Below, one piece after another: positions 1 through 40,255 of a DNA stretch of 40,255 nt. Made by a program: the position numbers and the translations under genes. Positions within the stretch are counted from its first letter, which is position 1; each line of letters opens with the position of its first letter. Origin of the DNA: a virus; the IMG/VR virus record IMGVR_UViG_3300006104_000005, positions 1 to 40,255 of that record. The stretch is one strand, 5' to 3'. The notes beneath the pieces were generated by a model, which saw nothing but the letters and a program-made list of their open reading frames with translations, ran no database searches and was not told the origin of the DNA.

Positions 1-50
1 ACCCGTTGAAATTGAGGCAAACCGATTCTTTCACGTTTTTGATCCTTCTC
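1..50. repeat. Terminal overlap, left copy
   Basis: These 50 bases are identical to 40206-40255. The portal reading frame is continuous across the join, so this is most simply the assembly overlap of a circular contig (a circular or circularly permuted molecule). It is not likely to be a biological terminal repeat. The non-redundant genome is 40,205 bp. Confidence 0.95.
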
Positions 51-1477
51 GCATTGATCAAATGAGGGGAGTAACGGCACTTGATGCTGCAATCGACACT
101 GCAAGAGACATTTACGACATCATGCAGTACGAGAAGTTTGCAGTTAAGTGGGCATCTGCTCAAACGGGAGTTATTACCCGTGAAGAGGGCGAGCCTGATG
201 AGTGGGAGACAAAGCAGGGATACTCCGAAGACGGCAAGGCCATTGAAGAGCTTACTTTCGGAAGACTGAACTACCTTAAAGAAGGTGAAAACATTCAGTC
301 GTTCATGTCTCAACGTCCCTCATCGGCGTTCAGCGGCTTTATTTCAACCCTTCAACGGGATGTATGCCATGCCATCGGCGCACCCTACGGATTCTTTGTG
401 GACAATTCCGCTCTTGGGGGAAACGCAGGCCGCATGGATAGCCAAAAGGCCAATCGTGTGTGTGAGCGTTACCAAAACCTCATGTGCGAAAAGTTCCTGA
501 ACAAGGTAAAAGACCTCTATCTTGCATGGGGTATTTCACAGGGAATAATTCCTGCTGTATCTTCATGGAGATCGGGTAAATGGCAGTTCCCAGCATGGCC
601 TACTGCCGACATTGGCAGGGATAGTGATGCAGCAATCAACGAGTTCCGCATTGGACTCCGCACCGCTGCCGACATCTACGCAGAGCAAAACAAGGATTGG
701 GAAGAGGAGTTCGAGCAGATTGGTCGTGAGCAAGAGCTACTTCAAAACATTGCCGACCGTCTCAACCTTCCGGTTGATCGACTCTCACAACGCAATCCCA
801 ACATCCTTCCGGATGAAGAGCAAAACGGGAAGCAGCCCACCAAGTCATCCCAGCCAGAAGAGAAGAAGCTGCAAGAAGTAAAAAAAAAAGACCCAGCCAA
901 AGTAGAGGCCGCAAAAAAGAACGCTCGTCCTCCGACATATAAATCGAACGTAGAGGCTAGCGACTGGGAGCATAAAATCGCTGAATATCTATCTTTGAAC
1001 GGGATAGAGGCGCACGTTACCGGACAAGCGTATCGCATGGGGGATGAAAAGTACGGGAAGACGTACAACCCTTCAGATATTCACGCTACAATCCCGATGA
1101 CAGATGGAAAAACCCGTGATGTCTGCATCGAGGTAAAAACCGTCGGTCTTCAGGGGGTACGAAGCAATCGCAAGCTGAAAATCACATCAAAGACGGCAAG
1201 TCGGAACGTGAAGCACATGGAAGCCGCAAGGCTGAAACGGAATCTGATTACAATTGCCGTTGACGCTCTTCATGCACGTCGAGATGCCTCCGGAAAACTT
1301 CAATCCATTGCAGGGGCAAGATTCTTTGTGTTCAGGGGAGTTGGAAACCCAAGGCTTGATACGAAGTCTACAGAAGCAATTGCAACGGGCATCGACGGGT
1401 TGATCGACAAACTTAAAAACGCACAGACCGCACCTATTGCTGGTAAGGACATCGAAAACAGTTCGTATTTTGTGTAG
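1..1477 (+). CDS. Portal protein, 3' part, with nuclease-like C-terminal domain
   Basis: This is the continuation of the gene that starts at 39568. Position 1 is the third base of a codon, and the joined product is about 704 residues. Residues up to about 480 form the portal, the dodecameric head vertex through which DNA is packaged; it resembles the lambda gpB family (Phage_portal_2), with the conserved stretch around FFHVFDPSRIDQMRG spanning the join. A Lys/Glu-rich linker (about 490-525) then leads to an extra C-terminal domain of about 160 residues. That domain shows an acidic residue (D572) followed by an E-x-K motif (E590, K592), a Lys-rich segment, a hydrophobic strand and an RGVGNPRL element. 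This looks like the nuclease-like tail domains seen on MuF and portal proteins, but the activity is inferred. It is followed by a TTGACAA word and the protease gene. Confidence 0.88.
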   Translation, partial: PVEIEANRFFHVFDPSRIDQMRGVTALDAAIDTARDIYDIMQYEKFAVKWASAQTGVITREEGEPDEWETKQGYSEDGKAIEELTFGRLNYLKEGENIQSFMSQRPSSAFSGFISTLQRDVCHAIGAPYGFFVDNSALGGNAGRMDSQKANRVCERYQNLMCEKFLNKVKDLYLAWGISQGIIPAVSSWRSGKWQFPAWPTADIGRDSDAAINEFRIGLRTAADIYAEQNKDWEEEFEQIGREQELLQNIADRLNLPVDRLSQRNPNILPDEEQNGKQPTKSSQPEEKKLQEVKKKDPAKVEAAKKNARPPTYKSNVEASDWEHKIAEYLSLNGIEAHVTGQAYRMGDEKYGKTYNPSDIHATIPMTDGKTRDVCIEVKTVGLQGVRSNRKLKITSKTASRNVKHMEAARLKRNLITIAVDALHARRDASGKLQSIAGARFFVFRGVGNPRLDTKSTEAIATGIDGLIDKLKNAQTAPIAGKDIENSSYFV

Positions 1478-19888: not shown

Positions 19889-20950
19889 ATGAGCCAATTC
19901 ACCGCAACAGCTACGCAGTACCTGATCCGCAACGAAAAGACCGGAACCTACTTCATCCGGAAGTGGGTTTCTGGAAGGGCCGTTAGGATTTCTTTGAAGA
20001 CCAAGCAGCTATCCGTGGCGAAAGCCAAGTTGCCGCAAGAACTCGCAAAGCTGCCCTCTAGCAAAGCAGGGGATGCATCATTCAACGAGGCAACCAATCT
20101 CGGTCAGTGCATCGAAAACGTGAAACGCCGCACGGAGATAAATCCCAACCTGCGTGAGGCATCGAGGAAGTACCGACTCAACACGATCATCTTTCTCGAA
20201 AAGACGTTTCCCAAGATCAAGACGATGAAGCCAAAGGAGCTTACGCCGATCAAGTGTGAGGAGTGGTTCACGTCATTGAAGGGGAAATACTCAGGAGCGT
20301 TGGTGAACAATGCCCTTGGCAGCCTTCGCATGATTGTGGACGAGGCCGTTAAAAGCGGTCTAATCCTGAGAGACCCGACGACCGGAATCAAACGGGCAAG
20401 GGTGAAGGCAAAGAACATGAGCCTTCCCTCAACTGCGGATTTCAAGCGGTTGGTTGCCGCAATCAGGAAGCCAAAGGACGAGAAAAAGCACAGCTACCGA
20501 TCCGACGCAGCAGCCGACCTCGTTGAGTTTCTCGCCTACTCAGGTTGCCGCATAGCTGAGGCAAATGGCCTCAAGTGGTCTGACGTTCGTCGAGAGGCAA
20601 AGAACCCGACCATCTACGTCACGGGCAAGGGGGGTTATTCCCGACACATTCCAATCATCGCCCCGATGAAGGATCTACTTTCCAGACTTCCGGTGAAGGG
20701 TGATTACGTCCTACGGGTCAAAGAAGCGGAGCAATCACTTTCCCGTGCCTGTGGTGACATTGGCATTGAACGCATCACTCACCACGACCTGCGTCACCTG
20801 TTTGCCACGACTTGCATTGAGTCCGGTGTGGACATCCCTACCGTTTCCCGATGGTTGGGCCATAAGGACGGGGGCGTGTTGGCCCTCAGAACGTATGGAC
20901 ACCTTCGTGAGACTCATAGTGCAAGCGTGGCAGACAAGGTGAAGTTTTAG
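19889..20950 (+). CDS. int: Tyrosine integrase
   Basis: This 353-residue site-specific recombinase inserts the phage at attB and, with an excisionase, removes it. The N-terminal arm-binding region (about 1-60) begins with a short beta-type segment. A core-binding SAM-like domain follows (about 65-165). The catalytic domain has all family residues: R221 (SGCRIAEANGLKW), K247 (VTGKGG), H299-x-x-R302 (HHDLRHLFAT), W322/H325 (RWLGHK) and nucleophile Y336 (RTYGHLR). It lies directly beside the tRNA-Lys-type attP core. The start follows repeats of ACTAGGT. The stop overlaps by four bases the stop of the convergent gene on the other strand. Confidence 0.95.
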   Translation: MSQFTATATQYLIRNEKTGTYFIRKWVSGRAVRISLKTKQLSVAKAKLPQELAKLPSSKAGDASFNEATNLGQCIENVKRRTEINPNLREASRKYRLNTIIFLEKTFPKIKTMKPKELTPIKCEEWFTSLKGKYSGALVNNALGSLRMIVDEAVKSGLILRDPTTGIKRARVKAKNMSLPSTADFKRLVAAIRKPKDEKKHSYRSDAAADLVEFLAYSGCRIAEANGLKWSDVRREAKNPTIYVTGKGGYSRHIPIIAPMKDLLSRLPVKGDYVLRVKEAEQSLSRACGDIGIERITHHDLRHLFATTCIESGVDIPTVSRWLGHKDGGVLALRTYGHLRETHSASVADKVKF

Positions 20951-23589: not shown

Positions 23590-24211
23590 CTCTGTGGCTT
23601 GTGTGTGTGTGTGCATTTTTTGGTTTGTTGTTGTTGGGGAAAATCCCCCTCCATCCGTTTTTGATCGACGTTTCCACGGCCATGATTGCTTCCGAAAGGC
23701 TCAGGTCTTCGAGATCCTTCAGGAGGCGTTTCTCAGCCAGTGGGGTAAGTTTGTTTCTGATCTGCTTTCTGTGTGTTCTGAACTCTTCCCAGATATTTCT
23801 GAAGGTCGTGCAATCCAACTTTTCCGGAAACACCGGAGCAGCTTGCTGCGCTTTCTTCTCTGTCTCTACCTCTGTCTCTGTCTCTCTCTCTCTCTCTGTC
23901 TCTGGGATAGCAACTTGATAGCAGCCTGCTAGCAACTCGAAGAAACCACTGGAAATCAACGGCTTAATAGCATCCTCAATTTCCTTCCTCGAAATCCGCA
24001 AACGGAACTCCAATTCGTCCGTTGTTGCATCAAATGAACCATCTGGTGATTCACTCGCAAGCAACCAGAGCAGGGGTGCTAGCCCCTTGCTAGCAAGCGG
24101 CAACGACATGAAATCCCGATTGTTCAGGAGATCACGATGCAACTTGATCCAAGGAGGGCAGCGATCCTTGTAGTGTTGGAATTTCTCCCAGCCCTTTGGA
24201 CGCAACTTCAT
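23525..24211 (-). CDS. Replication initiator (O/DnaD-like)
   Basis: This 228-residue protein has an N-terminal winged-helix region (about 18-100, WIKLHRDLLNNRDFMSLPLASKGL through SRKEIEDAIKPLISSGFFE). It then has a charged repeat ERERETETEVETEKK encoded by a CT-rich microsatellite. A C-terminal domain (about 130-190) contains FRNIWEEFRTHRKQIRNKLT and NGWRGIFP, as in many replisome organisers that bind the origin and recruit the helicase loader. The loader is the next gene. The end encodes HTHT, since it overlaps the CA leader of that gene. It overlaps the resolvase stop by ATGA. Confidence 0.75.
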   Translation of the reverse strand: MKLRPKGWEKFQHYKDRCPPWIKLHRDLLNNRDFMSLPLASKGLAPLLWLLASESPDGSFDATTDELEFRLRISRKEIEDAIKPLISSGFFELLAGCYQVAIPETERERETETEVETEKKAQQAAPVFPEKLDCTTFRNIWEEFRTHRKQIRNKLTPLAEKRLLKDLEDLSLSEAIMAVETSIKNGWRGIFPNNNKPKNAHTHTSHRDAKRSREYPEPPPQVLDLLAD

Positions 24212-24645
24212 AACTCGATCTTTCCGATGCAGACCTCGATGTGAGAATCCTCACCGATTGCAGCGTAGGTTTTTTTCACCAACTCGACGCAAATCTGACT
24301 GTCGTCCACCCAGAACGCCGAAAGGGAATCCTTGAGTGGCTTGATCAGATTATCCGTGTCGGGCCTGACCCAGCACGGTTGTCGGTTAGGGTTCTTTTTT
24401 CCAAGCCGCTGCGGCCTTGGCATTACGAACTCGACGGCAAGTATCAATGGGCCGCTCAAGGCAGTTTTAGGACGGTGTGGCCTAGCCAGTGTCGCAATCA
24501 ACTGCTGGTAGAGTTGAGCATCCTTGGTCTTGAAAAACCTTGGTTGCCCACCTCGCACAGTCAGACGCTTTCCGGAAAACTGCAATGACTTGGGTTCAAG
24601 TGGAACCGTAAACGAAATCATCTCGATTGGGAAATTGTCGCTCAT
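24208..24645 (-). CDS. RusA-type Holliday junction resolvase
   Basis: This 145-residue endonuclease resolves four-way junctions made during recombination and replication. It shows the family signature WVRPDTDNLIKPLKDSLSAFWVDDSQI with the metal-binding aspartates D96, D98, D106 and D114/D115, and a late Lys in ELVKKTY. The start MSDNFPIEM is preferred: GGTTTAAGCCG lies directly before the ATG, as before the small gene at 29890, and longer starts would overlap the previous gene. Confidence 0.85.
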   Translation of the reverse strand: MSDNFPIEMISFTVPLEPKSLQFSGKRLTVRGGQPRFFKTKDAQLYQQLIATLARPHRPKTALSGPLILAVEFVMPRPQRLGKKNPNRQPCWVRPDTDNLIKPLKDSLSAFWVDDSQICVELVKKTYAAIGEDSHIEVCIGKIEL

Positions 24646-24649
24646 CGGC

Positions 24650-24874
24650 TTAAACCCTCCAGACTCGAACGTATCCGTTTCGTCCCTCTTCCTTTCTGCT
24701 AACGCATTTGATCTTTTTGCGCCGAAAAATACTGATCGCAGTATTCCGACTTTCCGCAGGGATGACGAACGAATCACCCGCTTCCATCTCGTCGATAGTC
24801 GCAGAGTAATCAGTCACACCCTCTCGGTAGATCGTTGGTATCGTCACTCCCTTTTCAATTGTAAGTTTGCTCAT
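24650..24874 (-). CDS. Small conserved-type phage protein
   Basis: This 74-residue protein has EMEAGDSFVIPAESRNTAISIFRRKKIKCVSRK and ends GYVRVWRV. Small proteins of this layout (a Gly-Asp-Ser-Phe turn, a basic helix, then a strand ending in aromatic-Arg-Val) are common near recombination genes in phages, without known function. It starts three bases after the nuclease stop. Its own stop TAA is part of the GGTTTAAG word preceding the resolvase. Confidence 0.6.
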   Translation of the reverse strand: MSKLTIEKGVTIPTIYREGVTDYSATIDEMEAGDSFVIPAESRNTAISIFRRKKIKCVSRKEEGRNGYVRVWRV

Positions 24875-24877
24875 CGG

Positions 24878-26035
24878 TTACTTGTCCTTTTTCTTTTTGA
24901 TTGTTTTCGCACCCTCTTTGACTTCGACGCACTTGGCCTCAGTCAATCTCCCCATCACAAATAGTTCTGCATCGTCCAACTTGCACTGCGTGGCAGCGGC
25001 AACGGACTTGATTAGTTCAGGCAATGAAGGCTTGCAGCACTCCATGAACTGATTCCTCCCAAGCACGTCACTCAATGATTCAGATGCCGCTTTCGGATCA
25101 GTCACAGTCTTGGTCTCACGGCCACGGCTCAACGTGTATCCCTCAACACTATCCGGATCATTCTCAAGCATCGTTCGAGCAATCTCCTTCATGTCGGCAA
25201 GCCAATCACGAGCAGCCTTCTCTTTGTCCAAGAAGATGCGCCACTGACTAGGTGTCCATTCGGTCGGCAACGGGAGATTTCGCAACTCAATCGTCATCTC
25301 ACTACGCACCCACGAATGGTATTGCTGGCAATGATCTTTGAACGGGCAGTATTGGCATTGTTTCACGCCAGCACTCCGGTTCGTTGGTGGTGAATCAATC
25401 GCATCCTCAACGATCTTACGGACGTGCGCTTTGGCCTGAGCCAAAGACTCCTCCGGATAAACCGTGAGAGGCACGGAGTTCGACACCATCGGTTGTATGA
25501 TGCCAACGCTAATTGTCGCCCTCGATCCAGCCTCGATGTGATTTGCCAACAATGTAGCCAATCCACGGAGTTGAAGGTTTCTAGGTGACTCGACCTGCTC
25601 ACCATACAACGTCTTGAAATCCAGAATCAGGATGTCTCCCGATTCGGTCACAGCAACGATGTCGGGCTTTCCGCTATATTGATACTGACCCTTGTCGCCC
25701 CATTTCTCAGACCAGAAACGCTTCTCAACGCAAAGGATGGTGTAGTTTCTGCCACTCGACCATTGGTCGATAGCATTTTGGGCCATCCGCTTGCACTTGT
25801 TGAATGTCTCCAAATGATCCGGATGGACAGGAGATGTCCTACCCTCCAGAAACCATTCGGCTAAGTGATTGTGAACGACATTTCCGTATTCGGCATAGTC
25901 AGCCTGCTTCTCATCAAGTTTCTCCATCAGGCCGAGTGACCTGACGGAGTTGAACTTGCCGAGGCAAAGCGACAACGACTCAAGGGAACTGCACGAAGGC
26001 ATTCCCATACGCTCGTCTATAACGTGATTCGTCAT
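24878..26035 (-). CDS. PD-(D/E)XK exonuclease, DUF2800-type
   Basis: This 385-residue nuclease is the likely exonuclease partner of the Bet annealing protein. The catalytic core is seen as H55/H57, SGKPDIVAV (D125), LILDFKT (D139-x-K141) and a QLRGLA helix (Q155). Cys24 with C227-x2-C230-x5-C236 reproduces the Cas4/AddB pattern that ties an Fe-S cluster across the domain. The C-terminal third is helical and ends in Lys-rich sequence. A GGAGG site lies five bases before the ATG. The same combination in other phages replaces RecE or lambda Exo. Confidence 0.78.
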   Translation of the reverse strand: MTNHVIDERMGMPSCSSLESLSLCLGKFNSVRSLGLMEKLDEKQADYAEYGNVVHNHLAEWFLEGRTSPVHPDHLETFNKCKRMAQNAIDQWSSGRNYTILCVEKRFWSEKWGDKGQYQYSGKPDIVAVTESGDILILDFKTLYGEQVESPRNLQLRGLATLLANHIEAGSRATISVGIIQPMVSNSVPLTVYPEESLAQAKAHVRKIVEDAIDSPPTNRSAGVKQCQYCPFKDHCQQYHSWVRSEMTIELRNLPLPTEWTPSQWRIFLDKEKAARDWLADMKEIARTMLENDPDSVEGYTLSRGRETKTVTDPKAASESLSDVLGRNQFMECCKPSLPELIKSVAAATQCKLDDAELFVMGRLTEAKCVEVKEGAKTIKKKKDK

Positions 26036-26038
26036 GGT

Positions 26039-26131
26039 CTAGTCCTCCTTGTCGTGGAATAGATCGACCAATATCAGAAAGGCATAACCGATGATAATGC
26101 CTGCTACCAAGATGCAGAATTTCTCGATCAT
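26039..26131 (-). CDS. Micro-membrane protein, 30 aa
   Basis: This tiny gene starts with an ATG overlapping the preceding TGA (ATGA) and stops three bases before the nuclease ATG. The product has a short charged start (MIEKF), one hydrophobic segment (about 6-23, CILVAGIIIGYAFLILV) and an acidic tail (DLFHDKED). The downstream Shine-Dalgarno sequence for the nuclease is encoded in its last codons. The role is unknown. Confidence 0.5.
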   Translation of the reverse strand: MIEKFCILVAGIIIGYAFLILVDLFHDKED

Positions 26132-26469
26132 TTGTGTGCCTCGATTAGGTCGCTAAAACTTGGATAGCCGACTATGCCTAGTTCGACTTCAACACGACGA
26201 AGACGTGCTGAAAGCGATTGATAACCCTCGATCAAAGAACGTGGATCAAATCCATCTCCGGTCTTTGGTCGCCCGACCCGTTGATTCTTCAACTCAAGAA
26301 ACGAGGTGTAGATCATGTAACGCAATTGCGACACACCAACATCAATGCCGAGATCACTAGCAATCTGCTCGATGATGTCGTTGTGTTTATTCCGTTTGAT
26401 GAACTCCTGATTGTCCTTGATCCACTCGTAAAGAGCAGCCTTTGAGGCAAGGGGAAGATGAACGCTCAT
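26128..26469 (-). CDS. Uncharacterised recombination-region protein
   Basis: This 113-residue protein is mainly helical. Residues about 30-70 (DIIEQIASDLGIDVGVSQLRYMIYTSFLEL) could be a helix-turn-helix-like module, and a Lys/Arg-Pro linker and coiled coil (SLSARLRRVEVEL) follow. It lies between the Bet gene and the nuclease gene, with a two-base gap and an ATGA overlap. No family is recognised. Confidence 0.5.
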   Translation of the reverse strand: MSVHLPLASKAALYEWIKDNQEFIKRNKHNDIIEQIASDLGIDVGVSQLRYMIYTSFLELKNQRVGRPKTGDGFDPRSLIEGYQSLSARLRRVEVELGIVGYPSFSDLIEAHK

Positions 26470-26471
26470 GG

Positions 26472-27290
26472 TTAGGAAAGGGATAGGACTTCAGCCTTTT
26501 CTTCTGCCAGTTCACGAAGACGAATCTCTTCCATCTCCTCCGGTGACGGGCCACGCTTTGCCATCCCAGACTCTTCTGCCTCACGAGCAGTGATCAGTTT
26601 CCGTGCTTTTTTTGGCTCAGGAATCGGAACCGCTGAAACTGGCGCACCCATAGGAATGTCGTCATCTCCATGAATCGAATCCACCACTTCAACGGCATCA
26701 TCAAAAACCGGAGCCGATGTAGTCACAACAGACTTTGCTGCAACATCACGAACCTCATCCTCGTCATAGATTCCGGAGAATCCAAACGCCACACGGCTGC
26801 ACTGCATCAGTGCCTTGTGCCGCAGCATTCGACGTGGGGACTTGTTCCAAGGATCGGTATTCCGATGTGTCTCGCTATAGAACTCAGTCACCTTGGTCGG
26901 ACGTGAACGATCCTTACGATAGATCGAAGCAGTGCAAGAATACGGCTTGCCGTCCTCGCCATCGACGTACTCAAACTCAACGCCATCAAACTGCGGATGA
27001 TCATTGACGATACGAATCCATCCATCGACCGATACCATCGGAGCAATCCCTCCACCTTTCGCAGGAAAAGCATATAGCTCCTTGGTAAAGGGATTAAGAC
27101 CGTATTGATTCGCCACGACGGTCAACGCCATGACTTCCTCATTGGTCGCACCCTTGAAGACTGTGGACTTCAACGTGTGAAGCAGCTTCTCAGGATCTGC
27201 CTGTAGTCTCGCAGCCAATACGGTCAAGGCACTCGCCTTGTTAGCTACGGTTTGGGTTTTTTGTTGCGTCTGAACGCTCAGTGTGTTCAT
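26472..27290 (-). CDS. bet: Bet/RecT-family single-strand annealing protein
   Basis: This 272-residue protein should anneal complementary single strands during phage recombination. The family signature is clear from about 30 to 185: LLHTLKSTVFKGATNEEVMAL, then ANQYGLNPFTKELYAFPAKG, SVDGWIRIVNDHPQFDGVEF, and PWNKSPRRMLRHKALMQCSRVAFGF. The C-terminal 80 residues are acidic and Pro-rich, as in tails that contact SSB or the exonuclease. The leader has CACACACACACA eight bases before ATG and no Shine-Dalgarno site. The nuclease three genes downstream is the likely partner. Confidence 0.88.
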   Translation of the reverse strand: MNTLSVQTQQKTQTVANKASALTVLAARLQADPEKLLHTLKSTVFKGATNEEVMALTVVANQYGLNPFTKELYAFPAKGGGIAPMVSVDGWIRIVNDHPQFDGVEFEYVDGEDGKPYSCTASIYRKDRSRPTKVTEFYSETHRNTDPWNKSPRRMLRHKALMQCSRVAFGFSGIYDEDEVRDVAAKSVVTTSAPVFDDAVEVVDSIHGDDDIPMGAPVSAVPIPEPKKARKLITAREAEESGMAKRGPSPEEMEEIRLRELAEEKAEVLSLS

Positions 27291-30208: not shown

Positions 30209-31882
30209 TTAGCCAACGGTCGCAAGCCTACGGGCAAGGACATCGGCAACTTTGGTTGCGGTCTCACGGGTGATCTGTTGATCAAATCCGTATTCTTTCA
30301 TCGACTCAGTAACGTCAGTGGTTCCGACATAGAGGCCGATTGTGTAGACCCCATGCTCGTGAAGTTGTTTCACTGGTATCGGGCCATCGGTGATCTGGGC
30401 ATCGGTGTAGACCAGAGCAATCTTTGACTTGGCAATCTCTGCCATGTGCTTGGGGAACGTGTGGACAAATCCTTCCGAACCTTGCAGCGAATGGTTGTGA
30501 CGGCATTGGTCAATATCCTTTGCCGTAGCACTCCCAAGATCGAATGTGTGGAAAGCACCACCGCAAGCTGAGAGATAAACCTTACCGGTAATAACTCCGG
30601 TCTTGGCAAGATCACGAAGAGCGTAGAGCAGCACTCGACCCTCTGAATCGTGCCGAATCCATTCCTTGCCGTCGGCTGATCTACGAATCCGTCCACCCAT
30701 CGAACCGGAGCAATCCATCACGATTGAAATGTGAGGAACGCCACGATTGTTGTTGCGCTTGACCGTGTACGGATTGACTGGCGCACCGGAAACGATCTCA
30801 CGCATCCGGAGCCTACGGGAAGGTGACGAAGACTTCTGCTTGCCAACCCCCATCTTGGAACGGAAGGCAGAACTAAGCATGGATGCAATCCGTGCAGCGT
30901 CTTTCTCCTCAAACGACCGACGATCAACACCCTTTGCACCGTCACGCTTTGGGCCTGACGGAGTAGCATGGGATGGTTCGTATTTGCCCTGCTCGAAGTT
31001 ATTAACCTCTTCACCGTCTTTCGGGTCACAGATACTGTCACCACTGCCTGCTCCGTGACTTGCATCACCCTCGGTATCCTTACCTCCCTTTTCCTCACCG
31101 GAGGGGCTTTTGGCACGTCCCTTGGAAGATCCTTCCGGATCGAGGATCATAGAGTCGGACAGATCGCCACCATGAACACCGCTGCCGACTGGATTCTCAC
31201 CCTCAGCCTTCTCAGGAAACTCCTTGAGCCAATCAACAAGAACCGGAACCAAGTCCAACGTGGTGGCTGCTGAAACAAACCGACGATAGAACCTGCCGAT
31301 CTTCCTAGCTAACTCACGGGTCATCGGATCGGAATACACACCACGCAACTTAGGGTTACGAAGTGCGGATACGTTGTAACCAGTGCCAGTAATCTCGCAG
31401 TGAATGAATGCCAGAAGAATCGACTTGGGATTGCTGATGTCGAAACTTCCGTCGTTCCATTTCAACCAACCAAACTTCTTACGATATTTGGTGCGGTAGG
31501 CGTATTCGATTCTGGCATCCTCAGCCAGATTCCACAGATTGAATGGGATGCCATGCAACTTCTGCTGATCACTGATTGCACGGTGGTCACGTTCAGTCAT
31601 GATGGAGTGCATCCATTCATGGAGATAGATGGCCTTGGTGATTCCCAGCTTGTCGCCAGTCTTCAGGTCATCGTGAAGAGCCCACGCACCTTCATTGAGG
31701 TAGATGAAATGCTCACTACCGTCGTGAGTCCAGCAACCCGTTTTGGTTATACGGGAGAGAGTTGGGATGAAGTTGAGTTGATACCGCTCATTCGCACCTC
31801 CGTCTGAAACGTACTGGGTGCGTGTCTTGATGTGCAGGTTTTGCACTGCCGTCTTGGTGCGGCGGGGTAGTCGTAGTGACAT
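30209..31882 (-). CDS. HExxH and VWA-domain protein, CobT-like
   Basis: This 557-residue protein is the VWA partner of the AAA ATPase encoded just upstream. The N-terminal domain (about 1-225) has YLHEWMHS (H88-E89-x-x-H92) and NLAEDARIE (E121, D122), a zincin-like arrangement common in phage CobT-like proteins. Residues 225-330 are an acidic, Gly/Ser-rich linker. The C-terminal VWA domain has MDCSGSM (D390, S392, S394) and VYTDAQITDG (D494), a complete metal-ion-dependent adhesion site. MoxR/VWA pairs act as chaperone-like systems that insert metals or remodel partners; the phage target is unknown. The leader is CACACACACAACT before ATG. Confidence 0.78.
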   Translation of the reverse strand: MSLRLPRRTKTAVQNLHIKTRTQYVSDGGANERYQLNFIPTLSRITKTGCWTHDGSEHFIYLNEGAWALHDDLKTGDKLGITKAIYLHEWMHSIMTERDHRAISDQQKLHGIPFNLWNLAEDARIEYAYRTKYRKKFGWLKWNDGSFDISNPKSILLAFIHCEITGTGYNVSALRNPKLRGVYSDPMTRELARKIGRFYRRFVSAATTLDLVPVLVDWLKEFPEKAEGENPVGSGVHGGDLSDSMILDPEGSSKGRAKSPSGEEKGGKDTEGDASHGAGSGDSICDPKDGEEVNNFEQGKYEPSHATPSGPKRDGAKGVDRRSFEEKDAARIASMLSSAFRSKMGVGKQKSSSPSRRLRMREIVSGAPVNPYTVKRNNNRGVPHISIVMDCSGSMGGRIRRSADGKEWIRHDSEGRVLLYALRDLAKTGVITGKVYLSACGGAFHTFDLGSATAKDIDQCRHNHSLQGSEGFVHTFPKHMAEIAKSKIALVYTDAQITDGPIPVKQLHEHGVYTIGLYVGTTDVTESMKEYGFDQQITRETATKVADVLARRLATVG

Positions 31883-34976: not shown

Positions 34977-35681
34977 ATGGCAAACAAACTCCAAGAAACA
35001 CTGCGCTCATTGTCTGAGTTGGCAGAAAAACACGAGGAGATCACCGTAGCATTCAGTGCAGGGAAAGATTCCCTAGCAGTAATGGAGCTATGTTCTAGGA
35101 CGTTTAAGAAGGTTTCTGCCTTCTACTTTTTCGTTGTTCCTGACTTAGAAGTCACCAATCGGTATATGCGGCTTGCCCGTGATAGATGGAATATCAAGGT
35201 TGCCGAATACCCGTCCGATGGATTCTGCATGGCACTAAAGACGGGGCTATATTGCAACCCATCTGAGGCATTTGCCAACTATGAGGAACGGAATCTGAAA
35301 ACCGTTTATGCCCAGTCGCTTTATGTAACCACTGGAAACATAACTGGACTCGTTGCAACTGGGATGAAAGCAGCGGATGGACTCAAGCGCAGGCAGTTCT
35401 TTGCCAATATCGACCCAGCAAACGGAGGAGACCCGTTCTGGTCACAGGTACACCACCCGCTGAAGAGGTGGAACAAGCAGGAGGTTTTGGATTTCCTGAA
35501 AGATTGCGACATACCAATTCCTCCCACTGCCAAGGGAACCATCACAACCGGAGTTGGATTTGCACACGATGAGTTGTGTTTTCTACACGATCAATATCCG
35601 GATGATTTCGACAAGATGGAAAAGCTATTCCCGTACATAAGATCAACCATTTACCGGAGGAAATATCATGGAGTCGAATGA
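34977..35681 (+). CDS. PP-loop ATPase, PAPS reductase/DndC-like
   Basis: This 234-residue protein has the PP-loop FSAGKDSL (S27-S32), which adenylates a substrate with ATP. It then shows a Rossmann-like order, with FYFFVVPDLEVTNRYMRLAR, and a C-terminal segment SQVHHPLKRWNKQEVLDFLKDC typical of PAPS reductase-like and DndC-like proteins. The catalytic cysteine of true PAPS reductases at the C terminus is not seen, so sulfite production is unlikely. Base or backbone modification of nucleic acid is possible. It overlaps the ParB-like gene by 14 bases, a pairing frequent near phage terminases. Confidence 0.78.
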   Translation: MANKLQETLRSLSELAEKHEEITVAFSAGKDSLAVMELCSRTFKKVSAFYFFVVPDLEVTNRYMRLARDRWNIKVAEYPSDGFCMALKTGLYCNPSEAFANYEERNLKTVYAQSLYVTTGNITGLVATGMKAADGLKRRQFFANIDPANGGDPFWSQVHHPLKRWNKQEVLDFLKDCDIPIPPTAKGTITTGVGFAHDELCFLHDQYPDDFDKMEKLFPYIRSTIYRRKYHGVE

Positions 35682-36519
35682 CGAAAAACCAAAGAAGCGC
35701 AAGAAAGACGAGACGTTGAAAGCAGACCAACTTGATAGGTCTACCGCTCATCAGTCAAAGTTCCAAACATTCACCACAGAGTCGGTACATCGTGCCGACA
35801 TGAAGGGAGCCCCGTATAATCCAAGAAAGATCAGCGACGATGCCAAGAGAAGGCTGAAACAAAGTCTAGGCAAGGTCGGGCTTGTCCAGCCAATCGTCTG
35901 GAATAGGCAGACAGGAAATGTCGTTGGTGGGCATCAACGCCTTTCACAACTCGATGCACTTGAGGGAACGATCAACTATACCCTCACGGTTGCTGTTGTG
36001 GACGTGGATGAAACACGGGAAAAGGAAATCAACGTCCTCCTGAACAACACGCTAGTAACTGGAGATTGGGATTACGACCAACTGAAATCAGTCCTAAACT
36101 CTGAGGGGCTTGATCTTGAGTCTACCGGATTCGACGTGGCAGAAGTGATGAAACTTTTGGGTGACGATCAACACGCACGAAACGAAACCCTGACCACGGT
36201 TGCTCACGACTTGGATGCCGTGAAGCAAGCCTACGAAGACCTATTGGCATCTGGAGCCAACAAAGACGACGTAGACTTCTACAACGTGCTTGTGTTCGCA
36301 CGGTACGAAGACCGTGCAGAGTTTACGGAGATGATTGAGGTTGAAGACAACCGATACGTCGATGGATCGACTGTGGTAAAACTAATACGCTCCCTTCAGG
36401 ATCGAATTAGGAACCTCGAAGAGGCCCAACTTCCCGTCGAAGGGGATGGGGGAGTTGAAGCGGATGGGGTCACGCAGAACCCAGCCGAACCCATGCCCAG
36501 TGAACCACTCGGAGTCTGA
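35668..36519 (+). CDS. ParB/Srx-like nuclease-fold protein
   Basis: This 283-residue protein has a ParB N-terminal domain (about 42-150): YNPRKISDDA (N51-R53), LKQSLGKVGLVQPIVW and GGHQRLSQL (87-95), where the GGHQR motif replaces the GExR box of chromosomal ParB. Proteins of this fold bind CTP or cut DNA. No ParA is encoded, so partition is unlikely. The C-terminal region is acidic and Pro-rich. The last 138 bases overlap the ASCH gene on the opposite strand. The gene is coupled to the PP-loop ATPase. Confidence 0.75.
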   Translation: MESNDEKPKKRKKDETLKADQLDRSTAHQSKFQTFTTESVHRADMKGAPYNPRKISDDAKRRLKQSLGKVGLVQPIVWNRQTGNVVGGHQRLSQLDALEGTINYTLTVAVVDVDETREKEINVLLNNTLVTGDWDYDQLKSVLNSEGLDLESTGFDVAEVMKLLGDDQHARNETLTTVAHDLDAVKQAYEDLLASGANKDDVDFYNVLVFARYEDRAEFTEMIEVEDNRYVDGSTVVKLIRSLQDRIRNLEEAQLPVEGDGGVEADGVTQNPAEPMPSEPLGV

Positions 36520-36804: not shown

Positions 36805-37488
36805 ATGAACAATATCGACGATGACGGTGATGAAGTCCATGAAGAAGTAACTGATGCTCAACTAAAAGCACGTCAGTCAGATCCCTTGCGGATGATTCAA
36901 CAAAAGAACATTCGCAACCTCATCAAGAAAGTTGGAGACGGAAAAACCCTTACCTCCCACGAAGAGGCAACGCTTGCCAGATACTATGAAGGTCAGAATG
37001 GTGGAGGGGCCGTTGTCTACGCAAAGAACAAAACAGAATTAGCTGATCAACTTGGCATCGACAGGAGAACCATTAACCGATGGGTGAAAGTTGAGGGTAG
37101 TCCTTCCGCACGTTCAAACGGATCATGGTCAGTGCTAGAATGGAGAGACTGGGCAGAAAGAACGGGAAGAAAACTGGCACTTGATGATGACGACACCGAC
37201 ACGGAACGGGAGAGGCTTGAATTGCGCCGACTCCGGACAATCTGTGAAAAGATCGAGTTCGATTTCCAAATATCAAAGGGGTATTACACGGCAAACGAAG
37301 ACGTGGAAATCATGGTGCGGCGAATGGTTGGAGCAAGCCGCAAGATATTGGCACAAGTCCCAAGCAGTCTAGCACCTCAGCTAGCAGGTCTCCCGATAGC
37401 AGAGATTGAGCAACGACTTAAAAACGCAATCGAAGATGCTCTCAAGCATCTACACACTGGTGAATGGTCAACTGAGGATGACGAATGA
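36805..37488 (+). CDS. Terminase small subunit
   Basis: This 227-residue DNA-binding subunit recognises the packaging site for the large terminase. A helix-turn-helix of the Nu1 type is visible: KTELADQLGIDRRTINRWVKVEGSP (about 73-98). A following charged coiled region (TERERLELRRLRTICEKIEFDFQISKG) and a C-terminal domain that should contact the large subunit complete it. GGTTTAAGCCG lies five bases before the ATG. The gene overlaps the large subunit by ATGA. It is somewhat longer than lambda Nu1 (181 aa). Confidence 0.75.
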   Translation: MNNIDDDGDEVHEEVTDAQLKARQSDPLRMIQQKNIRNLIKKVGDGKTLTSHEEATLARYYEGQNGGGAVVYAKNKTELADQLGIDRRTINRWVKVEGSPSARSNGSWSVLEWRDWAERTGRKLALDDDDTDTERERLELRRLRTICEKIEFDFQISKGYYTANEDVEIMVRRMVGASRKILAQVPSSLAPQLAGLPIAEIEQRLKNAIEDALKHLHTGEWSTEDDE

Positions 37489-39287
37489 ACATCGTTGAGA
37501 AGGCAGCACGGGCAGCATGGAAGCCAATAGACCAAAGACCTCCTTGGGCATGGGCTGAAGAGCATATCCAGATCGACAAAACATCTCCTTTTCCGGGCAA
37601 GTACCGCTCAGATACTGCACCGTGGACAAAAGAACTGATGGAGGTTTTTGCGGATAACCGCATCAACGACATTTCCGTGATGTGTTCAGCCCAGAGTGCC
37701 AAGACACAAACCATTATGATCCTGCTCGCATGGGCAATTGCAGAAGATCCAGCCCCTGCAATGTGGGTTATGGCAGCACAGGATGAAGCAAAAACATTTT
37801 GCCAGACACGACTGATGCCAACCCTGCGTGAATGCAAGCCAGTTGCCGACCTGATGCCGAACAACCGGAGTTCAATTCGTGGACTAGAAATCGACTTTAC
37901 GTCCATGCCGCTTGTTGTGAATGGGTCGAATAGCCCATCCAAACTTCAATCCAAGCCAATCCGATGGTTGTTTTTGGATGAGGTAAGAAACTATCCAGCA
38001 GGTGCTTTGGAAATGGCACTAAAGCGCACCAGATCGTTTTGGAATGCCCGTCGAGTCATCATATCAACCCCAGACATGGAGAGTGATGCTGTTCACATGG
38101 CTTTCTTGGCTGGGGATCAAAGGCATTACTACGTTTCGTGTCCGGATTGCTCTCATTATTTTGTTTTGTCGTGGGAGACAATCAAATGGGACGACACCCC
38201 ATTCACAAGACCGGACGGGGCATGGATCATGGATAACGTGGCTGAAACAATCAGGTGTGAATGCCCTAAGTGTGGTCATCGAATCTATGACAAGCCGCAA
38301 GTGCGACGTGAATTGGCAATTTCAGGGAAATGGATTCCGCACAATCCCAACGCCCCGAAAAACCGTGTTTCCTTTACTTGGAATGCCCTTGTTCCCCCTT
38401 GGGTGCGGTGGCGTGATCTTGTTGAAGAGTTTTTAGAGGCAAACAAGTCACTTACTTGGAAGGATCACGAGAAGCTCAAGTCCTTTGTAAATGAATCACT
38501 AGGTCAGCCTTGGGCTGATACCATGAAGGACATCAGGGATTGGTCGTGGGTTTCCGAACGCAAAGCCACCTACGAGTTACGGGAGCATTGGTCAGCTGAA
38601 TACAAACGATTCCTTACCGTGGACGTGCAAAAAGACCATATCTGGTACTTGTGCAGGGCATGGGCCAAAGGTGGTGCTAGTCGATTGGTTGATTTTGGCA
38701 AGGTGTGGAATTTCGACGAACTCAGGCAAATTCAAAAAGACCTACGGGTCAATGACGACGACGTTGCAATCGACTCAGGATACAACGCTACGATGGTCTA
38801 TTCCGAGATCGTTAAATCCGGATACCGATGGAAGGCTTTCAAGGGAGATCGAGCCACCTACTTCTCACACAACGGTGTACGCAAATGCTGGACATCTAGC
38901 AGTGCCGATCCAGCAATAGGAACGTCCATGCAGGGCAAAATGAAGCCCGTGAAGCTGTTCATTTGGGCAAACCACCTAACCAAGGACACCCTTGCAATGT
39001 ATATGAAGGGGTTGGCTGCGCCTTGGGAAATACCAGAATCTGCATCCCAGCAATACCTCGACCAGATCACGGCAGAAAGCAGGGAGCAATTAGTATCCGC
39101 TAAAGGGGTCGTTTCTTACGAATGGGTTAGAGTCAGAAAGGATAACCACGCATTTGACTTGGAGTGCATGAACCTTATCTGCGCTTTAATCACCAAAGTC
39201 ACCTCAATGCCGTCACTGCCTGAAGACGCAAGCCCAACTGACACAGTTTCTGCTATTTCAACCGAAACTGACACTTCCGAAAATTAG
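37485..39287 (+). CDS. Terminase large subunit, GpA family
   Basis: This 600-residue packaging motor has an ATPase domain with an atypical Walker A region in SAQSAKTQT (68-76) and Walker B WLFLDE (161-166). Characteristic GpA-family knuckles follow: CPDC (219-222) and CECPKCGH (258-265). The C-terminal nuclease domain has TVDVQKDHIWYL and DDDVAIDSGY acidic sites for metal. GpA-type terminases usually cut at cos sites, so the phage probably has cohesive ends, although the ends cannot be seen in a circular contig. It overlaps the small subunit (ATGA). Confidence 0.9.
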   Translation: MNIVEKAARAAWKPIDQRPPWAWAEEHIQIDKTSPFPGKYRSDTAPWTKELMEVFADNRINDISVMCSAQSAKTQTIMILLAWAIAEDPAPAMWVMAAQDEAKTFCQTRLMPTLRECKPVADLMPNNRSSIRGLEIDFTSMPLVVNGSNSPSKLQSKPIRWLFLDEVRNYPAGALEMALKRTRSFWNARRVIISTPDMESDAVHMAFLAGDQRHYYVSCPDCSHYFVLSWETIKWDDTPFTRPDGAWIMDNVAETIRCECPKCGHRIYDKPQVRRELAISGKWIPHNPNAPKNRVSFTWNALVPPWVRWRDLVEEFLEANKSLTWKDHEKLKSFVNESLGQPWADTMKDIRDWSWVSERKATYELREHWSAEYKRFLTVDVQKDHIWYLCRAWAKGGASRLVDFGKVWNFDELRQIQKDLRVNDDDVAIDSGYNATMVYSEIVKSGYRWKAFKGDRATYFSHNGVRKCWTSSSADPAIGTSMQGKMKPVKLFIWANHLTKDTLAMYMKGLAAPWEIPESASQQYLDQITAESREQLVSAKGVVSYEWVRVRKDNHAFDLECMNLICALITKVTSMPSLPEDASPTDTVSAISTETDTSEN

Positions 39288-39567: not shown

Positions 39568-40255
39568 ATGATCCCAAAAACAAAACCAAACTTTATCGAC
39601 CGACTCGTCGGGTTTGTCGATCCGTCCGCTGGAATCAAGCGCATTAAAGCCCGTGAGGCACTGGCACTTACTCAGTTTTCATACAATGCTGCCAAAGGGG
39701 GGCGCGATAGGGCATTGGTTCCTACTACAGGCAATTCTTCATCGGAAGCAGGAATCAATCAAAGAGACCGCATTCAACTTATTTGGGAAGCCCGTGCATT
39801 GTGCTATAACTTCCCACTGGTCAAGGGGTTAATCAACAATCTGGCACTATATTCGTTTGGTTCATTGCGGTATCAGCCCAGAACCGGAGATAAGAATGTT
39901 GATCGGCAATACTCAGATTACCTGAACTACGCATTTGAAAACTGCGATGTTACCCGTCGCCACAATCTTACCACCCTTGCCAACCTTGTATTCAAGGGGA
40001 TGCTGCGAGATGGAGATATTGGAGTTGTTGTACGTTGGACTCCAGAAGGCCCGATGCTTCAACTTGTTGAATCTGATTGTATTGGTCGCCCATTAGAAGC
40101 CCCACACTCAGAAGTCTACATTGGGGGAATTACAAGAGACCCGAATACCGGAGCCCCGCTGCTGTATCGTGTGTATTACCGAACCCGTGAAGGGCTTTAC
40201 ATCGAACCCGTTGAAATTGAGGCAAACCGATTCTTTCACGTTTTTGATCCTTCTC
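39568..40255 (+). CDS. Portal protein, 5' part
   Basis: This is the N-terminal 229 residues of the portal gene, continued at position 1 (the final 50 bases are duplicated there). It starts MIPKTKPNFIDRLVGFVDP and contains GINQRDRIQLIWEARALCYNFPLVKGLINNL and LVFKGMLRDGDIGVVV, typical of lambda-type portals. There are three bases between the previous stop and the ATG. Together with 1-1477 it makes a product of about 704 residues with a nuclease-like C-terminal domain. Confidence 0.9.
   Translation, partial: MIPKTKPNFIDRLVGFVDPSAGIKRIKAREALALTQFSYNAAKGGRDRALVPTTGNSSSEAGINQRDRIQLIWEARALCYNFPLVKGLINNLALYSFGSLRYQPRTGDKNVDRQYSDYLNYAFENCDVTRRHNLTTLANLVFKGMLRDGDIGVVVRWTPEGPMLQLVESDCIGRPLEAPHSEVYIGGITRDPNTGAPLLYRVYYRTREGLYIEPVEIEANRFFHVFDPS
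40206..40255. repeat. Terminal overlap, right copy
   Basis: These bases are identical to positions 1-50. They mark circular closure of the assembly within the portal gene. Confidence 0.95.

What the first reader, a model, noticed from the sequence alone, without database searches (positions are those of the whole stretch)
953..1477. Portal protein carrying a nuclease-like C-terminal domain
After a Lys/Glu linker the portal gains about 160 residues with D572, E590 and K592 in D-x(17)-E-x-K spacing, then a Lys-rich stretch and an RGVGNPRL motif. MuF-type proteins in other phages carry toxin or nuclease domains that may be delivered with DNA; fusion to the portal would place such a domain at the packaging vertex. 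It could act on infecting competitors, host DNA or phage ends.
Basis: partly seen in the sequence, partly recalled or inferred. Interest (0 to 1): 0.65.

Follow-up and report, generated by a model that had tools for sequence, protein, structure and literature searches.

The report
Phage portal with DNA-cutting tail domain
In this phage the protein ring through which DNA enters and leaves the virus head carries an extra domain predicted to be a DNA-cutting enzyme, and close relatives carry other enzymes at the same spot, which suggests the ring is used as a carrier for swappable cargo.

Summary
The window is a circular phage contig (50-bp end repeat). The portal gene crosses the contig ends and encodes 704 aa: a complete lambda-type portal, a Lys/Glu linker, and a C-terminal domain with D572, E590 and K592. 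The spacing motif alone is weak evidence (4% of shuffles). Better evidence comes from a relative, L009, whose portal carries a homologous domain (32% identity, E 5e-16) that keeps E536, D572, E590 and K592. A two-sequence AlphaFold model (pTM 0.69) has the restriction-enzyme-like fold. Its leading PDB matches are PD-(D/E)XK nucleases, led by Hjc Holliday-junction resolvases, at marginal E-values. I take it to be a PD-(D/E)XK nuclease domain with an intact-looking active site.

Related portals differ exactly at this C-terminus: ADP-ribosyltransferase plus nuclease (L009), topoisomerase IB (L010), a short unknown domain, or nothing. L009 and L010 are collinear at 83% DNA identity up to a Cys/Gly linker, where a different cassette begins. 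Best explanation: swappable virion-carried enzymatic cargo, in the manner of MuF toxins. Activity, delivery and target are untested; a packaging-linked debranching role is the main rival. Enzyme-portal fusions are already published, so this is a new variant of a known kind.

The parts
39568..40205 (+). Portal gene, first part (residues 1-213); 40206-40255 repeats window 1-50
   Evidence: 50-bp terminal repeat; one 704-aa frame when joined; PF05136 7.5e-13
1..847 (+). Portal core, second part (to about residue 495)
   Evidence: PF05136 1.9e-20; phrog_21 1.5e-30; unextended relatives end near here
848..949 (+). Lys/Glu/Pro-rich linker (about residues 496-529)
   Evidence: sequence
950..1435 (+). 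PD-(D/E)XK nuclease-like domain (about residues 530-691)
   Evidence: homologous to the end of the L009 portal, 32% identity, E 4.6e-16; AlphaFold pTM 0.69; Foldseek matches to Hjc, SPARDA nuclease, RecU
968..970 (+). E536, helix 1, putative catalytic glutamate
   Evidence: conserved in L009; in helix 8-21 of the model
1070..1078 (+). P570-S571-D572
   Evidence: conserved as NPSD; opens strand 2 of the model
1130..1138 (+). E590-V-K592
   Evidence: conserved as EVK; strand 3 of the model
1334..1357 (+). RGVGNPRL (658-665), conserved as KGVGSPRI in L009
1499..2527 (+). Next gene, probably prohead protease/scaffold (inferred from position and sequence; no Pfam match). It starts 21 bases after the portal stop, so there is no room for an immunity gene directly downstream
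37485..39287 (+). Terminase large subunit, ATPase and nuclease domains present
   Evidence: PF05876 4.3e-49, PF20454 2.2e-29

Best explanation
The portal of this temperate-type phage carries a PD-(D/E)XK nuclease domain with an intact-looking active site as C-terminal cargo. The extension follows a complete portal core, so it should project from the crown into the capsid interior, up to twelve copies per virion. It is carried with the packaged genome and acts at infection, either passing into the cell with the DNA or acting at the vertex, to cut host, plasmid or rival-phage DNA. It would work like MuF-borne effectors, with the portal itself as carrier. Shown here: the fusion, the homology, the conserved active-site residues, the predicted fold, and gain/loss/exchange of C-terminal cassettes among relatives. 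Inferred: catalysis, lumen-side position, delivery and target.
For: Intact portal core with appended domain. Homologous domain on the L009 portal with E536, D572, E590 and K592 kept. Predicted restriction-like fold; leading PDB matches are PD-(D/E)XK enzymes. Relatives carry ADP-ribosyltransferase+nuclease (L009) or topoisomerase IB (L010) at the same place. L009 and L010 are collinear at 83% DNA identity up to a Cys/Gly linker, then differ, then resume at 79%. The nuclease is patchy on the portal tree: the window groups with L131 (no extension), L009 with L010 (no nuclease). Published PBECR, 2H, InPase, Nudix and ART domains fused to MuF or portals are read as head-packaged effectors. The C-terminal crown of T4 portal is the innermost part (PMC4493910).
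Against: No activity, virion or delivery data. Only two independent sequences carry the domain. The model is of medium confidence and single Foldseek E-values are marginal (best 5e-3). No release site is identified. No small ORF follows the portal in the window, unlike most MuF toxin genes, which are followed by a candidate immunity gene. A nuclease next to packaged DNA needs restraint that is not explained.
Confidence: 0.55

Rival explanations
1. Packaging-linked DNA processing. The domain is a structure-specific (Hjc-like) nuclease tethered to the packaging vertex that debranches concatemers or trims DNA during packaging, as T4 endonuclease VII does in association with portal gp20. The topoisomerase IB on the L010 portal would be an equivalent aid.
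For: Leading fold matches are Holliday-junction resolvases. T4 endonuclease VII is targeted to gp20 and releases stalled Y-DNA; endonuclease VII or topoisomerase II defects impair packaging. A structure-specific enzyme would spare the packaged duplex.
Against: The phage already has a RusA-like resolvase (24208-24777, 1.8e-25) and a terminase with its own nuclease domain. The portal C-terminus is expected on the lumen side, away from incoming branched DNA (inferred by homology). The ADP-ribosyltransferase in L009 does not fit. Close relatives package without any extension. Fold similarity to Hjc does not show junction specificity.
Confidence: 0.22
2. The domain acts late in the producing cell, on host or competing DNA, while portals are being made, rather than after delivery.
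For: The gene lies in the head/packaging block, so newly made portal would be abundant late; nuclease active-site residues are conserved.
Against: A virion protein is an awkward place for a purely intracellular enzyme; the phage's own replicating DNA would be exposed. Related fusions are read as delivered effectors.
Confidence: 0.1
3. An inert domain that only binds DNA or helps portal assembly, kept in a nuclease-like fold.
For: Lys-rich stretches. Inactive relatives in virions are known: the PBECR domain of Mu MuF is reported as inactive (PMC5512222).
Against: All four expected catalytic residues are kept between two domains only 32-37% identical.
Confidence: 0.1

Closest known systems
MuF polymorphic toxins (PMC5576092)
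   Same: Head protein at the portal vertex with exchangeable C-terminal enzymatic domains, often nucleases; temperate phages
   Different: Carrier here is the portal itself; no MuF domain; no immunity gene directly downstream in the window; the nuclease family is PD-(D/E)XK
Enzyme-portal fusions and polyvalent proteins: PBECR, 2H, InPase, Nudix, ART fused to portal (PMC5512222, PMC9503650)
   Same: Enzymatic domain fused directly to a portal, interpreted as packaged and delivered
   Different: I found no PD-(D/E)XK nuclease or topoisomerase IB on a portal in the papers read; here sister phages show the exchange at one joint
T4 endonuclease VII with portal gp20
   Same: A DNA-cutting enzyme at the portal vertex
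   Different: A separate protein that associates with gp20; here covalently fused, predicted lumen-side, and of a different nuclease fold (fold of endonuclease VII from my own knowledge)
Hjc/RecU-type PD-(D/E)XK nucleases
   Same: Predicted fold and order of catalytic residues
   Different: No detectable sequence similarity; junction specificity untested

Membership tests
PD-(D/E)XK nuclease superfamily | alpha-beta-beta-beta-alpha-beta core | tested here: met
   AlphaFold two-sequence model, pLDDT 67, pTM 0.69; leading PDB matches are PD-(D/E)XK enzymes, best E 5e-3. Medium confidence
PD-(D/E)XK nuclease superfamily | Acidic residue opening strand 2 and (D/E)-x-K in strand 3, often with a helix-1 Glu | tested here: met
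   D572, E590, K592 and E536 at these positions and conserved in L009
PD-(D/E)XK nuclease superfamily | Match to a curated sequence family of the superfamily | tested here: not met
   No Pfam, PHROG, NCBIfam or PDB-sequence match. The superfamily is known to be highly divergent, so this does not exclude it
PD-(D/E)XK nuclease superfamily | Metal-dependent DNA cleavage | not testable with these tools
   needs a biochemical assay
Hjc-type Holliday-junction resolvases | Cleavage specific for four-way junctions | not testable with these tools
   only fold similarity
MuF polymorphic toxins | MuF domain carrying the C-terminal effector | tested here: not met
   carrier matches PF05136 portal, no MuF match
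MuF polymorphic toxins | Candidate immunity gene directly downstream | tested here: not met
   next ORF, 342 aa, starts 21 bases after the portal stop; L009 does have a 97-aa ORF directly after its portal
Enzyme-portal fusions (published) | Complete portal plus enzymatic domain in one frame | tested here: met
   seen in several contigs
Enzyme-portal fusions (published) | Presence in virions and transfer into the cell | not testable with these tools
   needs virion proteomics and a translocation test

The most novel reading that the evidence does not exclude
In this phage clade the portal is a dedicated carrier of interchangeable DNA- and protein-acting enzymes (PD-(D/E)XK nuclease, ADP-ribosyltransferase, topoisomerase IB), exchanged as cassettes at a fixed linker after the portal core: a portal-based polymorphic effector system parallel to, and independent of, MuF.
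Probability: 0.4. Interest if true: 0.7.

Novelty: new variant of a known kind. Interest (0 to 1): 0.5.

Why it matters
Portals are usually treated as pure channel and packaging parts. A portal with up to twelve tethered nuclease copies, and sister phages that carry an ADP-ribosyltransferase or a topoisomerase at the same joint, would make the virion vertex a cargo platform and would raise a testable question: how a packaged genome survives next to a nuclease. It also gives natural examples of portals that tolerate C-terminal fusions of 180-530 residues.

Tried and rejected
Barnase/EndoU/RelE (PBECR) fold: the model and the E...PSD...EVK residues fit PD-(D/E)XK instead. Assembly chimera: rejected, two further contigs are identical and L009 is independent. 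Single-sequence AlphaFold (pLDDT 46) and its Foldseek hits were discarded as meaningless. The domain was not found in annotated phages, plasmids or GTDB genomes; a TerL-based GTDB scan also found nothing, so the host is unknown. A degenerate helix-motif scan of viral contigs returned the known phages plus two chance hits, a helicase-like ORF and a low-complexity ORF. Capsid-protein and other gene searches gave only distant hits in mixed hosts.

Full report
WHAT IS THERE. The 40,255-base window is a circular phage contig: its first and last 50 bases are identical. The portal gene is split by the arbitrary ends. Residues up to about 495 are a lambda-type portal (PF05136, phrog_21, TIGR01539 below its cut-off) encoded behind a GpA-type terminase. 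Then come a Lys/Glu linker and about 175 further residues with no match in Pfam, PHROGs, NCBIfam or PDB sequences. Two contigs from other metagenome data sets encode the identical 704-aa protein, so the fusion is real. The phage has an integrase (19889-20950), so it is of temperate type; no host could be assigned.

IS THE MOTIF MORE THAN CHANCE? On its own, barely: D-x17-E-x-K is found in 4.2% of shuffles of the domain, a looser spacing in 45%, and P-[ST]-D...[DE]-x-K in 0.7%. Homology is the better test. A terminase-based search of viral contigs brought in L009, a phage whose 1044-aa portal ends in a relative of the window domain (32% identity over 190 aa, E 4.6e-16). Across that distance NPSD, EVK, the helix-1 glutamate E536, TS[KR]...R..KH.E and GVG.PR are kept.

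FOLD. AlphaFold on one sequence failed (pLDDT 46) and its structural matches were discarded. With the L009 relative as the only other row, the model rose to pLDDT 67 and pTM 0.69, in the order helix, strand, strand, strand, helix, strand. E536 lies in helix 1, D572 opens strand 2, and E590/K592 lie in strand 3. Against the PDB the leading matches are archaeal Hjc Holliday-junction resolvases, SPARDA nuclease-complex chains and RecU, with tRNA-splicing endonucleases further down (best E 5e-3, Foldseek probability 0.9-1.0 for most of the leaders). The viral structure library gives DUF4365, Holliday resolvases and PD-(D/E)XK proteins among its hits. Each single match is marginal; their agreement is what counts. 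I take the domain to be a PD-(D/E)XK nuclease with an intact-looking active site (about 0.85).

RELATIVES. I surveyed portals in the related viral contigs. Most end at about 475-520 aa with no extension. One group carries a short shared domain (RGMT.VG.ARARDL...GWGGDAG, phrog_2859). The three longest portals are those of the window (nuclease), L009 (DRAT-like ADP-ribosyltransferase, PF07357 2.6e-8, then the nuclease) and L010 (topoisomerase IB, PF01028 1.5e-7). L009 and L010 are collinear at 83% DNA identity for 9 kb up to a Cys/Gly linker (FNCGTGAGGFK.GN.C); homology then stops and resumes at 79% after the cassette. In L009 that linker is repeated, 88% identical DNA over 68 bases, between the ART and the nuclease. 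On a tree of portal cores the window groups with L131, which has no extension (support 0.97), and L009 with L010, which has no nuclease (support 1.0). So the nuclease is patchy, and the position after the portal core is a site of cassette gain, loss or exchange. In L131 the same interval holds two separate ORFs, each with a G.FAPKG motif near its start.

HOW IT PROBABLY WORKS. Shown: fusion, homology, conserved residues, predicted fold, cassette exchange. From published work: the crown is the innermost part of the T4, SPP1 and P22 portals, and in T4 it is made of the C-terminal residues 451-524 (PMC4493910), so a C-terminal extension should sit inside the capsid, in up to twelve copies (inference by homology). 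Enzymatic domains fused to MuF or portals are interpreted as effectors carried in the head and delivered with DNA (PMC5512222, PMC9503650, PMC5576092). The simplest reading is that this nuclease is such cargo. Delivery would need release or passage of the domain; the linker is a candidate cleavage site, untested. The target (host chromosome, plasmid, rival phage) is unknown. How the packaged genome is spared is unknown; structure specificity, lack of metal, or masking until release are possibilities.

MAIN RIVAL. The Hjc-like fold, and the topoisomerase in L010, suggest a role in packaging. T4 endonuclease VII is targeted to portal gp20, and endonuclease VII or topoisomerase II defects impair packaging (PMC10893049, PMC3485210). 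Against this, the window phage has its own RusA-type resolvase (24208-24777) and a terminase with a nuclease domain, the cargo is expected on the lumen side, close relatives manage without it, and an ART does not fit. I give it about 0.22.

NOVELTY. Enzyme-portal fusions are published, so this is not a new kind. I did not find a PD-(D/E)XK nuclease or a topoisomerase IB on a portal in the library searched, which holds open-access papers only. The side-by-side cassette exchange at one joint is a clear, testable example. I class it as a new variant of a known kind.

LIMITS. Only two independent sequences carry the nuclease, the model is of medium confidence, no coordinates were available to inspect the active site, and nothing is known of activity, delivery or host.

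Noticed in passing
L010:7969-10692: Portal with a C-terminal topoisomerase IB domain (PF01028 1.5e-7), including an NTP...KYIDP stretch that resembles the tyrosine region of bacterial topoisomerase IB (resemblance from memory).
   Followed up: partly
L009:9466-10400: Portal with a DRAT-like ADP-ribosyltransferase domain (PF07357 2.6e-8) ahead of the nuclease, between two copies of a Cys/Gly linker.
   Followed up: partly
L009:11083-11376: Acidic 97-aa ORF directly after the ART-nuclease portal, inside the swapped cassette and absent from L010 and the window; a possible immunity or accessory gene.
   Followed up: partly
L009:11363-11752, L010:10892-11284: A 129-130 aa ORF (phrog_7595; ...RSRHNC...PGPKWKARYWSCKFW) between the portal cassette and the protease in both phages, 86% identical.
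   Followed up: no
L131:4400-5615: Two ORFs after an unextended portal, each with a W.E.K.R..G.FAPKG motif near its start; perhaps unfused cargo with a shared head-targeting motif.
   Followed up: no
L011, L047, L050, L051, L055, L057, L134-L138: Portals with a shared short C-terminal domain (RGMT.VG.ARARDL...GWGGDAG; phrog_2859, unknown function).
   Followed up: no
window 34977-36519: PAPS-reductase-like gene followed by a ParB-like gene just upstream of the terminase genes; resembles the IbrA/IbrB pair (from memory).
   Followed up: no
window 24208-27290: RusA-like resolvase, RecE-like PD-(D/E)XK exonuclease (DUF2800) and RecT: a recombination block.
   Followed up: partly
window 30209-31882: A 557-aa protein with no Pfam, PHROG or phage-record match.
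   Followed up: no
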